Shown piece by piece: positions 1-63,440 of a stretch of DNA of 64,000 nucleotides. A program made the translations under genes and the position numbers. The notes beneath the pieces are model-generated. The model was given only the letters and a program-made list of their open reading frames with translations. It ran no database searches and was not told the origin of the DNA. This DNA comes from an uncultured Psychroserpens sp. GTDB taxonomy: Bacteria; Bacteroidota; Bacteroidia; Flavobacteriales; Flavobacteriaceae. The stretch covers positions 310,001 through 374,000 of the forward strand of contig CANKZZ010000003.1 in the NCBI GenBank assembly GCA_947488655.1, given 5' to 3'. How positions within the stretch are numbered: the first letter of the stretch is position 1; every line of letters starts with the position of its first letter.

Positions 1-494
1 TCATTTATGGTTTCTAAAGATAACTTATAGGTATGACGAGCAGCTCCAGAAACACAAGGTTTTAAAACCGTTTCGCTCCAATTTAAGATGTCATGCAATT
101 GTGCTAAGGTAACTTTTGAGCCTTTTTCTATAAAATGACTTTTGGCAATATGAATACCTTTAATTTGTAAATCTAAAAGGTAATGTTTATCAATATTCCA
201 TCTAATTAACTTTTCAGAATTTAGAAGTAACGTTTCCGAAGACACAGATTCTAACCAATTTGAAAATTCATCAAACCTATCAAAATAATCCCAAGTACTA
301 CGAAACAAAATGGCCTTTGTTGTTGACCAATCAAAAAATTGATCGTCCCATGCAAGACGTAACGTTTTAAGTCCTATTTGCTCTAAGGCGTGATACACCA
401 AACGGTCTTCGTAATACACATTGTGTTTGTAGTTATTAGTTTTAGAATCATTGAGGTAGCGACTATCTGTTAAAATGACAACGTCGTATAGCAT
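1..494 (-). CDS. ATP-grasp domain protein (3' end lost at window edge)
   Basis: The frame is open from an ATG at 494 down to the window edge, giving about 164 N-terminal residues with no stop. The N-terminus (MLYDVVILTDSRY) and the later VLKPCVSGAARHTYKL stretch resemble the pre-ATP-grasp and ATP-binding regions of stand-alone ATP-grasp enzymes of the RimK/glutathione synthetase/DcsG-like group. These form amide bonds through an acyl-phosphate. The substrate cannot be told and the catalytic C-terminal half is missing. It starts 18 bp after the stop of the Tricorn-like gene on the same strand, so the two may be cotranscribed. Confidence 0.7.
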   Translation of the reverse strand, partial: MLYDVVILTDSRYLNDSKTNNYKHNVYYEDRLVYHALEQIGLKTLRLAWDDQFFDWSTTKAILFRSTWDYFDRFDEFSNWLESVSSETLLLNSEKLIRWNIDKHYLLDLQIKGIHIAKSHFIEKGSKVTLAQLHDILNWSETVLKPCVSGAARHTYKLSLETIN

Positions 495-512
495 TTAGCA
501 AGTCTTTATTAA

Positions 513-61497: not shown

Positions 61498-61532
61498 AAA
61501 CCTTAAATTGCTTAAACAAATAGAATTAACCC

Positions 61533-63440
61533 ATGAGTAATTATCACATAAAACACTTAGAAGAATATTATCAAGTATATAGAAAATCGGTTAATAACCC
61601 AGAAGCATTTTGGGAAGAAATTGCTGAAGAACATTTTTTATGGAGAAAAAAATGGGATAATGTTTTAGAGTGGAATTTTAATACACCAGAAGTTAAATGG
61701 TTTGAAGGTGCTCAACTTAATATAACCGAGAACTGTATAGATAGACACTTAGCTACCAGAGGAGACAAAACTGCGATACTTTTTGAGCCTAATAATCCAG
61801 ACGAAGGCTCAGAGCATATCACCTATAAGCAATTGTATCATCGTGTTAATCAATTTGCAAATGTTTTAAAAGCACAAGGTGTTAAAAAAGGAGATCGTGT
61901 ATGTATTTATGTACCTATGATACCAGAGTTAGCAATTGCAGTATTGGCATGTGCAAGAATAGGAGCTATTCACTCAGTTGTATTTGCAGGATTTTCGTCA
62001 ACAGCACTTGCAACTAGAATTAATGATTGTGACTGTAAAATAGTAATCACTGCCGATGGATCTTTTAGAGGCGCTAAGACAATAGATTTAAAAGGCATAG
62101 TTGATGACGCTTTAGAACAGTGCGAAGGTGTAGAAACGGTTTTAGTCGCAAAGCGAATTAATTCCGAAGTAAGTATGAAAAACAATCGTGATAAATGGTT
62201 ACAACCGTTATTAGATGCAGCTTCAGATCAATGTAAAGCAGAAGTCATGCAAGCTGAAGATCCGTTATTCATATTATATACTTCCGGTTCAACAGGAAAA
62301 CCAAAAGGAATGGTTCACACAACTGCTGGATATATGGTGTATACAGCATATACATTCAAAAATGCATTTCAGTATAGAGAAAATGACGTTTATTGGTGTA
62401 CTGCAGATATTGGTTGGATCACTGGTCATTCTTATATAGTTTATGGTCCCTTATGTAATGGCGCAACTACAGTAATGTTTGAAGGCGTACCTAGTTATCC
62501 AGATTTTGGACGTTTCTGGGATATTGTAGAAAAGCATAAAGTAAACCAATTCTATACAGCTCCAACAGCAATTAGAGCATTAGCCAAACAAGGTGTTGAG
62601 TTAATAGAAAAATATGATTTGTCATCACTTAAAGTACTTGGTAGTGTAGGAGAACCTATTAATGAAGAAGCTTGGCATTGGTATAATGAAAATGTAGGTA
62701 AAAAGAAAAGCCCTATTATAGATTCTTGGTGGCAAACAGAAACTGGAGGTATAATGATAACGCCAATACCATACGTTACACCAACCAAGCCAACGTATGC
62801 AACTTTACCATTTATAGGGATTCAGCCTTGTTTAATGAATGAAAATGGTCAAGAGTTAAAAGGCAATCAAGTAGAAGGTCGTTTATGTATAAAATTTCCT
62901 TGGCCTAGTATTGCACGTACTATTTGGGGTAATCACCAACGTTATAAAGACACCTATTTTTCTACTTATGAGAATAAATACTTTACAGGAGATGGCGCGT
63001 TAAGAGATGAAGTTGGATATTATAGAATTACTGGTCGAGTAGATGATGTGATTATTGTGTCTGGTCATAATTTGGGTACAGCTCCTATTGAGGATGCTAT
63101 AAATGAACATCCAGCCATAGCAGAGAGTGCTATTGTTGGTTTTCCGCATGATATAAAAGGTAGCGCTTTATATGGTTATGTTACATTAAAAGATGCAGGA
63201 GGCACTAGAAATCATGATAACTTGCGTAAAGAAATAAATCAATTAATATCTGATCGTATTGGTCCAATTGCAAAATTAGATAAAATTCAATTTACTCAAG
63301 GTTTGCCAAAAACGCGTAGCGGTAAAATAATGAGACGTATTCTTCGGAAAATAGCGGAAAACGATACTACTAATTTAGGAGATATTAGTACTTTGTTAAA
63401 TCCAGAATGTGTAGAAGATATTATGGATAATGCTCTATAA
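61533..63440 (+). CDS. acs: Acetyl-CoA synthetase (AMP-forming)
   Basis: 635 residues, the usual Acs length. The P-loop YTSGSTGKPKGM, the DSWWQTETGG motif, the TGRVDDVIIVSGHNLG hinge and catalytic Lys598 in KTRSGKIMRR are all present. It activates acetate to acetyl-CoA via acetyl-AMP. The lysine is a known target of protein acetylation in the family. It completes the path from aldehyde to acetyl-CoA with the two genes upstream and ends at a bidirectional terminator. Confidence 0.95.
   Translation: MSNYHIKHLEEYYQVYRKSVNNPEAFWEEIAEEHFLWRKKWDNVLEWNFNTPEVKWFEGAQLNITENCIDRHLATRGDKTAILFEPNNPDEGSEHITYKQLYHRVNQFANVLKAQGVKKGDRVCIYVPMIPELAIAVLACARIGAIHSVVFAGFSSTALATRINDCDCKIVITADGSFRGAKTIDLKGIVDDALEQCEGVETVLVAKRINSEVSMKNNRDKWLQPLLDAASDQCKAEVMQAEDPLFILYTSGSTGKPKGMVHTTAGYMVYTAYTFKNAFQYRENDVYWCTADIGWITGHSYIVYGPLCNGATTVMFEGVPSYPDFGRFWDIVEKHKVNQFYTAPTAIRALAKQGVELIEKYDLSSLKVLGSVGEPINEEAWHWYNENVGKKKSPIIDSWWQTETGGIMITPIPYVTPTKPTYATLPFIGIQPCLMNENGQELKGNQVEGRLCIKFPWPSIARTIWGNHQRYKDTYFSTYENKYFTGDGALRDEVGYYRITGRVDDVIIVSGHNLGTAPIEDAINEHPAIAESAIVGFPHDIKGSALYGYVTLKDAGGTRNHDNLRKEINQLISDRIGPIAKLDKIQFTQGLPKTRSGKIMRRILRKIAENDTTNLGDISTLLNPECVEDIMDNAL

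What the first reader, a model, noticed from the sequence alone, without database searches (positions are those of the whole stretch)
234..63349. A dispersed octamer, TTCCGAAG/CTTCGGAA, strongly over-represented on both strands
By eye there are at least 26 copies. On the plus strand TTCCGAAG starts at 234, 3525, 4920, 10862, 15380, 26853, 32865, 37932, 41692, 42070, 49667, 53855, 56176, 56287 and 62162. CTTCGGAA starts at 12450, 12613, 19860, 25279, 40576, 42842, 44630, 48117, 48681, 53306 and 63342. Base composition (about 32% GC) predicts about one. Near-variants (TTCCGAAA, TTCCGAAT) were seen only once or twice. Copies occur in several reading frames and force rare codons (CGG, TCC). The flanks favour TTTCCGAAGAA. 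Orientation does not follow gene direction. Five copies fall in the 23-kb PUL, fewer per kb than elsewhere. Candidates are a DNA-uptake word, a Chi-like or chromosome-organising site, or a site tied to methylation. I know of no description of it in this group.
Basis: partly seen in the sequence, partly recalled or inferred. Interest (0 to 1): 0.8.

Follow-up and report, generated by a model that had tools for sequence, protein, structure and literature searches.

The report
Uptake-signal-like DNA word in marine Flavobacteriaceae
A short DNA word is scattered hundreds to thousands of times over the chromosomes of some marine Flavobacteriaceae, carries a fixed flanking pattern, and is nearly missing around conjugation genes, which suggests it marks the cell's own DNA, most likely for DNA uptake.

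Summary
The genome is a Psychroserpens or close kin. Codon shuffling does not explain it: 250 copies in genes against 13.4 expected. It is a longer DNA-level motif, tTTCCGNAG followed by an A-tract, repeated in a second species and present in all six coding frames. Copies show no replication polarity, are kept at matching places between species about three times more often than comparable 8-mers, and are depleted around conjugation genes: 16 against 76 expected. Enrichment is patchy in the family. These features fit a DNA uptake signal of the Haemophilus/Neisseria type better than a Chi site, and the genome carries a gene pair resembling one essential for transformation in Riemerella. Uptake itself is untested, and genes present do not separate word-rich from word-poor species; a non-polar Chi-like site or another dsDNA-binding protein remain possible. 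I found no description of it in ten searches of one open-access library.

The parts
233..244 (+). full motif TTTCCGNAGNNA (octamer 234-241)
3525..3532 (+). octamer TTCCGAAG
4920..4927 (+). octamer
7743..7754 (-). variant full motif TTTCCGTAGAAA
7840..7851 (-). variant full motif TTTCCGTAGGGA
10861..10872 (+). full motif (octamer 10862-10869)
12447..12458 (-). full motif (octamer 12450-12457)
12610..12621 (-). full motif (octamer 12613-12620)
37931..37942 (+). full motif (octamer 37932-37939)
38409..38420 (-). variant full motif TTTCCGCAGTAA
40576..40583 (-). octamer
41691..41702 (+). full motif (octamer 41692-41699)
42069..42080 (+). full motif (octamer 42070-42077)
42839..42850 (-). full motif (octamer 42842-42849)
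44627..44638 (-). full motif (octamer 44630-44637)
48114..48125 (-). full motif (octamer 48117-48124)
48681..48688 (-). octamer
49666..49677 (+). full motif (octamer 49667-49674)
51555..51566 (+). variant full motif TTTCCGTAGTTA
53303..53314 (-). full motif (octamer 53306-53313)
53855..53862 (+). octamer
56176..56183 (+). octamer
56287..56294 (+). octamer
62162..62169 (+). octamer
63342..63349 (-). octamer

Best explanation
TTCCGAAG is the core of a self-recognition signal for DNA, most likely a DNA uptake sequence. Shown: a DNA-level motif, tTTCCGNAG with A preferred at N and an A-tract at +8 to about +16, fills the resident chromosome at about one copy per 1.4-3 kb in word-rich species, in both orientations, in and between genes, and is depleted around conjugation genes. 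Inferred: a surface DNA receptor of the Flavobacteriaceae transformation machinery binds the core and the bendable A-tract as double-stranded DNA, fragments that carry it are imported more often, and recombination of such fragments makes the word accumulate in vertically inherited DNA by molecular drive, while newly arrived elements lack it until they ameliorate.
For: Enrichment about 20- to 50-fold over Markov models, by order and masking, and about 17- to 19-fold over codon shuffling, with all six frames raised. T at -1 and the A-tract replicate in a second species, and A at +8 to +13 exceeds codon-position background in every frame (the two smallest frame classes hold 8 and 21 copies). TTCCGTAG and TTCCGCAG share the flanks; 12 other one-mismatch words examined do not clearly do so (the small sets are noisy), as expected of a binding site that tolerates position 6. 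No polarity, random spacing, mostly in genes (250 of 293). Conserved at orthologous places 130 of 316 against 44.3 expected. Depleted around the conjugation gene TraG: 16 against 76.1, close to the reversed word's 12, matching the reported drop of DUS density in Neisseria genomic islands (PMC7371117, passages). ComEC in 23 of 23 genomes of the genus. The genome has, side by side, a DUF5689 protein with choice-of-anchor J domain and a 957-aa CarboxypepD_reg protein, resembling in domains and adjacency RA0C_RS04920/RS04915, essential for transformation in Riemerella anatipestifer (PMC8459023, sections 19-21). R. columbina takes up its own DNA preferentially (PMC7965970, passages). AT-tracts beside the core also contribute to uptake in the Haemophilus USS (PMC7811141, passages).
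Against: No uptake data exist for this organism. Competence genes are as common in word-poor genomes (ComEC 52 of 54; DUF5689 36 of 40), so presence of machinery does not predict the word. Identity of the candidate receptor to the window genome's does not track word richness after allowing for DnaN identity (t = 1.17, n = 28), and two word-rich genomes of one genus (G299, G084) have receptors only 45% and 37% identical to it; the reader protein may be another. A classical halo of one-mismatch forms is limited: positions 1, 3 and 8 show none, position 7 little, and position-1 mismatches are nearly missing; positions 2, 4 and 5 have raised forms but without the flank. There are no inverted pairs at terminators. 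Word-poor genomes sampled show no replacement 'dialect'. In other word-rich genera the flanks are weaker.
Confidence: 0.52

Rival explanations
1. A Chi-like recombination hotspot read by AddAB: the nuclease stops degrading at the word, so that resident DNA is repaired and incoming DNA is destroyed. The word accumulates in the core genome because it protects it.
For: AddB-like proteins (PDDEXK_1 in frames of about 910-945 aa) in 30 of 30 genomes and a second match in a frame of about 1043-1083 aa in 26 of 30, the window genome included; length of 8, count per genome similar to E. coli Chi (1008, as tabulated in PMC1939737), depletion around conjugation genes.
Against: No polarity in four genomes, whereas polarity is a criterion for Chi in PMC8022716 (passages; that paper treats Proteobacteria with RecBCD, not AddAB); an A-tract of about eight positions with a peak at +10 is unexpected for a site read as single strand (recalled); the word is 10 and 18 times the reversed word in G000 and G009 against 5.7 for E. 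coli Chi over a composition-only expectation (PMC1939737; not the same measure); the word is at baseline in relatives that have the same genes.
Confidence: 0.18
2. A chromosome-organising site: an abundant nucleoid or partition protein binds core plus A-tract as double-stranded DNA, and selection spreads sites over the chromosome.
For: A-tract flank, coverage with near-Poisson counts per 20 kb, depletion around conjugation genes.
Against: Copy number differs more than fiftyfold within the family among genomes of similar size (2678 in G299, 33 in G140) and almost eightfold within the genus, which is hard for a housekeeping function; no polarity, so not an FtsK-type guide.
Confidence: 0.14
3. 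A HIP1-like word created by biased mismatch repair or methylation rather than selected for a function.
For: Very high count in some lineages and not in close relatives, as for HIP1 in cyanobacteria (PMC4390886, abstract and passages); HIP1 too has favoured extensions in 12 genomes, so flanks alone do not exclude this.
Against: Not a palindrome, unlike HIP1; the flank preference reaches about nine bases past the core on one side; a contiguous asymmetric 8-mer is not a usual methyltransferase target (recalled).
Confidence: 0.08
4. A by-product of codon or codon-pair preference.
For: Frame use is uneven (92 of 250 in one frame); TGCCGAAA, another enriched word, is confined to two frames; TTCCGTAG lies mostly in one frame (44 of 63).
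Against: Codon shuffling gives 13.4 against 250 and all six frames are raised; non-coding density is 1.7 and 1.4 times the coding density in the two species; flanks hold in all frames and outside genes.
Confidence: 0.02

Closest known systems
Uptake signal sequence (USS) of Haemophilus influenzae and other Pasteurellaceae
   Same: Dispersed short asymmetric core, strong over-representation, AT-rich tracts beside the core that contribute to uptake (PMC7811141, passages).
   Different: Another core word and another phylum; one A-tract directly after the core was seen, not two tracts as in the USS; uptake not shown; Haemophilus uses a type IV pilus, whereas four of the transformation genes known in Riemerella resemble no known machinery (PMC8459023).
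DNA uptake sequence (DUS) dialects of Neisseriaceae
   Same: About one site per 0.4-1.1 kb there, with drops in genomic islands (PMC7371117), against one per 1.8 kb in G009 and a drop around conjugation genes.
   Different: No second dialect found in five word-poor genomes sampled at 80 kb each; no receptor identified.
Chi sites (RecBCD/AddAB)
   Same: Eight bases, concentrated in the resident genome, AddAB-like genes present.
   Different: No replication polarity; strong flanks.
HIP1 of cyanobacteria
   Same: Very frequent octamer whose level varies strongly between lineages (PMC4390886).
   Different: HIP1 is a palindrome linked to methyltransferases; this word is not palindromic.

Membership tests
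DNA uptake sequence (DUS/USS) | Very strong dispersed over-representation not explained by composition or codons | tested here: met
DNA uptake sequence (DUS/USS) | Both orientations, in and between genes, no polarity | tested here: met
DNA uptake sequence (DUS/USS) | Core with AT-tract flank (USS type) | tested here: met
   clear in G000 and G009, weaker in G299, G122 and G034
DNA uptake sequence (DUS/USS) | Over-represented one-mismatch forms | tested here: inconclusive
   position 6 variants raised with the same flanks; positions 1, 3 and 8 none, 7 little; forms at 2, 4 and 5 raised without the flank
DNA uptake sequence (DUS/USS) | Sharp drop in recently acquired DNA | tested here: met
   16 against 76.1 in 11 TraG-centred stretches of 20 kb (7 against 20.5 in the inner 5.4 kb)
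DNA uptake sequence (DUS/USS) | Competence genes in the genome | tested here: met
   ComEC, DUF5689 protein beside a 957-aa CarboxypepD_reg protein; DprA and ComF were not searched
DNA uptake sequence (DUS/USS) | Preferential uptake of DNA that carries the word | not testable with these tools
   needs a transformation assay
DNA uptake sequence (DUS/USS) | Minor pilin receptor of a type IV pilus | not tested
   no search for pilins was run
Chi site | Over-representation in resident rather than acquired DNA | tested here: met
Chi site | Polarity along the replication direction | tested here: not met
   145:148, 130:135, 87:85, 44:55, by GC skew of each stretch
Chi site | RecBCD or AddAB present | tested here: met
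   (by family match and frame length only)
Chi site | Alters nuclease activity and stimulates recombination | not testable with these tools
   biochemistry needed
HIP1 | Perfect palindrome | tested here: not met
   TTCCGAAG read directly
HIP1 | Cognate methyltransferase | not tested
   no methylation data

The most novel reading that the evidence does not exclude
Some Flavobacteriaceae have their own DNA uptake sequence, tTTCCGNAG plus A-tract, read by transformation machinery unrelated to that of Haemophilus and Neisseria; the same octamer rose in separate lineages or was lost several times, which would be an independent origin of sequence-marked bacterial sex in Bacteroidota.
Probability: 0.45. 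Interest if true: 0.9.

Novelty: new variant of a known kind. Interest (0 to 1): 0.78.

Why it matters
As far as recalled, uptake sequences are established only in Pasteurellaceae and Neisseriaceae. A third origin, in another phylum and with different machinery, would make the old question testable of whether such words serve self-recognition or are a by-product of receptor bias, with word-rich and word-poor species in one genus as natural contrast. If it is instead a Chi-like or organising site, it would still be an unusually strong one. It would also be practical: adding the motif to DNA may help to transform these marine bacteria in the laboratory.

Tried and rejected
Codon or composition artefact: rejected. 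Transcription-factor site: most copies are in genes (250 of 293). RNA signal: sense and antisense copies in genes are about equal (117 against 133). Terminator pairs: only 5 of 253 neighbouring gaps in G000 and 6 of 243 in G009 join oppositely oriented copies within 60 bases. FtsK-type polarity: none. Replacement words in word-poor genomes: none comparable in 80 kb each of G080, G175, G286, G004 and G015 (in the G015 sample TTCCGAAG itself is 11 against 2.5). Receptor co-variation: not significant (identities of the best-scoring match, partial for some genomes). The palindrome CGACTAGTCG, which looked raised, is not above chance with up to two mismatches. Literature: ten searches; the bare octamer is in 1,097 papers, of which I saw the first 20 listed (titles from unrelated fields); no paper listed in the ten searches describes the word in this group by its title or the start of its abstract, and three papers on frequent words were searched for it or its half without a hit.

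Full report
What was checked. Dinucleotide shuffles give 0.79 on average and never more than 3 in 100. In the whole genome there are 1194 copies (580 and 614 by strand) against 119 for the reversed word. The genome itself is unnamed; the nearest DnaN proteins, 95-97% identical, are from Arcticiflavibacter luteus, Psychroserpens species and one unnamed Flavobacteriales genome, so it is a Psychroserpens or close kin.

Not composition, not codons. In 836,841 bases sampled from the genome (39 stretches plus the window, about 23%) there are 293 copies; models of order 2 to 5 with the word masked expect 5.7 to 11.7. With synonymous codons shuffled within genes, 20 shuffles give a mean of 13.4 copies against 250 observed in predicted genes, and each of the six frame and strand classes is raised; in congener G009 the figures are 14.0 and 232. 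Non-coding density is 1.7 and 1.4 times the coding density. Gene prediction was a simple longest-ORF rule.

It is a longer motif. Copies are preceded by T (70% and 64% in the two species) and followed by an A-tract: A at +8 to +13 is 65, 68, 81, 66, 52 and 63% in G000 and 66, 69, 71, 54, 58 and 58% in G009, against 33-34% background; the preference fades by about +17. At +8 to +13 it holds in all six coding frames above codon-position background and outside genes (both species pooled). The variants TTCCGTAG (68 seen, 6.3 expected) and TTCCGCAG (33, 4.4) carry the same flank (A at +10 75% and 79%); 12 other one-mismatch words examined do not clearly show it, though some of these sets hold only 9 to 24 copies. 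In G009 the same two are raised (70 and 86 against 7.2 and 7.7). TTCCGTAG lies mostly in one frame (44 of 63 in genes), so part of its count may be codon-linked. Mismatches at position 1 are nearly absent (2 seen; 17.7 expected at third order and 8.2 at fourth order after masking), which I cannot explain. The pattern TTTCCGAAGNNA occurs 688 times in the genome against 16 for its reversed form.

No polarity, random spacing. Each stretch was assigned a leading strand by the sign of its GC skew. Copies on the G-rich strand and the other: 145:148 (G000), 130:135 (G009), 87:85 (G299), 44:55 (G122). Counts per 20 kb are close to Poisson in G000 (mean 6.9, variance 6.8) and slightly wider in G009 (12.0, 14.4).

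Kept between species. Around dnaN, the window and eight named loci (L001-L008) were aligned pairwise. Where a copy in one lies in gap-free alignment, the other has the same word in 130 of 316 comparisons; 8-mers with the same number of G+C in the same alignments would give 44.3. Copies in unaligned stretches were dropped, each pair was counted in both directions, and the comparisons are not independent. Between the window and two word-rich relatives (L001, L003) the figures are 6 of 8 and 7 of 9, against 24% and 19% for background 8-mers. In the word-poor loci L007 and L008 the window's copies are never kept (0 of 10 and 0 of 6).

Depleted around conjugation genes. TraG (TIGR03783) was found at 11 places in 7 of 25 genomes searched, none of them the window's genome. 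The 5.4 kb first returned at each hold 7 copies against 20.5 expected. Twenty kilobases centred on each hold 16 copies against 76.1 expected at each genome's own density; the reversed word occurs 12 times there. Related elements may share sequence, so the p-value printed (7e-17) is too small, but each of the 11 stretches is below expectation. That these stretches lie inside integrative elements is inferred from TraG; ends were not mapped. The four word-poor stretches that I opened (chosen for being poor, after the fact) hold an N-6 DNA methylase with HsdM N-terminal domain near a NOV_C protein (L113), efflux pumps, P-type ATPase and multicopper oxidase (L108), multicopper oxidase again (L114), and ParB with efflux genes some 24-44 kb from the G009 TraG gene (L153).

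Distribution. In the genus, copies range from 278 to 2174 in 23 genomes; by eye, 11 of 23 have at least three times the reversed word, and the lowest (G015) has 1.1 times. In 299 genomes of the family, by eye, 28 in 19 of 236 genera reach three times; one of them (G280) on low counts (123 against 35). In 393 genomes drawn from the order, the pattern TTTCCGAAGNNA exceeds 100 copies only in genera g1, g28, g32, g76 and g100, all of this family; most word-rich genera were not in that draw, and a few low-count genomes of another family also have a high ratio (G558: 49 against 1). A DnaN tree of 30 chosen genomes (20 word-rich, 10 poor) needs at least three changes of the label on well-supported branches; Psychroserpens sits among word-poor genera (98/96). 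So the word was gained more than once or lost several times; one gene and a chosen sample cannot tell which. Motif details differ outside the genus: in G299 T at -1 is weaker, the A-tract is present, and TTCTGAAG is also raised but without the A-tract. Five word-poor genomes, 80 kb each, show no comparable replacement word.

Machinery. ComEC is present in 52 of 54 genomes examined, all 23 of the genus included; an AddB-like protein in 30 of 30 and an AddA-length partner in 26 of 30; DUF5689 in 36 of 40. Presence therefore does not separate word-rich from word-poor genomes. In the window's genome a DUF5689 protein of 476 aa lies next to a 957-aa CarboxypepD_reg protein on the same strand (L232). 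The former also matches choice-of-anchor J above cut-off, and DUF5017 (26.3 against 28.8) and NCBI's 'M949_1556 family lipoprotein' model (200.8 against 475) below theirs. In Riemerella anatipestifer the pair RA0C_RS04920 (DUF5689, DUF5017) and RS04915 (CarboxypepD_reg) is essential for transformation, and homologues are reported from Psychroserpens (PMC8459023, sections 19-21 read). Orthology of my pair to theirs was not tested by sequence. In R. columbina, transformation was cut by competing own DNA but not by equal amounts of R. anatipestifer or E. coli DNA; the authors listed frequent k-mers and left their function open (PMC7965970, passages). Neither protein has a sequence match in the PDB at the thresholds used.

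Judgement. Enrichment, asymmetry, A-tract, position-specific tolerance, lack of polarity, conservation and depletion around conjugation genes together resemble uptake sequences most. A Chi site fails on polarity. An unknown dsDNA-binding protein with another role cannot be excluded. Uptake preference, the reader protein and the drive are inferred, not shown.

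Noticed in passing
G032 and G263 (genus g11), whole genomes: TTCCGAAG is strongly under-represented: 7 and 5 copies against 54 and 60 of the reversed word, as if avoided.
   Followed up: no
window genome sample, 837 kb: TGCCGAAA and other TGCCGAA words are enriched; TGCCGAAA lacks the A-tract and, in genes, lies in only two frames, so it looks codon-linked.
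   Followed up: partly
window genome sample, 837 kb: Words that differ from TTCCGAAG at position 1 are nearly absent (2 against 17.7 expected at third order, 8.2 at fourth, after masking); no explanation.
   Followed up: no
L068 7277-7379; L065 6896-6984: Perfect heptamer tandem arrays TGAATAG (14.7 copies) and TGAATAC (12.7 copies) in the dnaN neighbourhood of Bizionia and Winogradskyella; repeated words in L009 and L072 may be similar, not checked.
   Followed up: partly
G299 and G122 samples: TTCTGAAG and TTTCTGAA are enriched about four- to sevenfold next to TTCCGAAG in these genera; cause unknown.
   Followed up: partly
G135, G304, G097, G140, G164: The DUF5689 protein is a longer frame (656-756 aa) with two DUF5689 domains, in word-rich (G135, G304, G097) and word-poor (G140, G164) genomes alike.
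   Followed up: no
G262:C1:1904593-1905984: The match to the DUF5689 protein has one TAA stop inside in this word-rich genome.
   Followed up: no
   Followed up: partly
G000 C3:120001-140000 (L113): Word-poor stretch with an N-6 DNA methylase with HsdM N-terminal domain and a 1510-aa protein with NOV_C and Sacsin-like domains, which looks like a defence island.
   Followed up: partly
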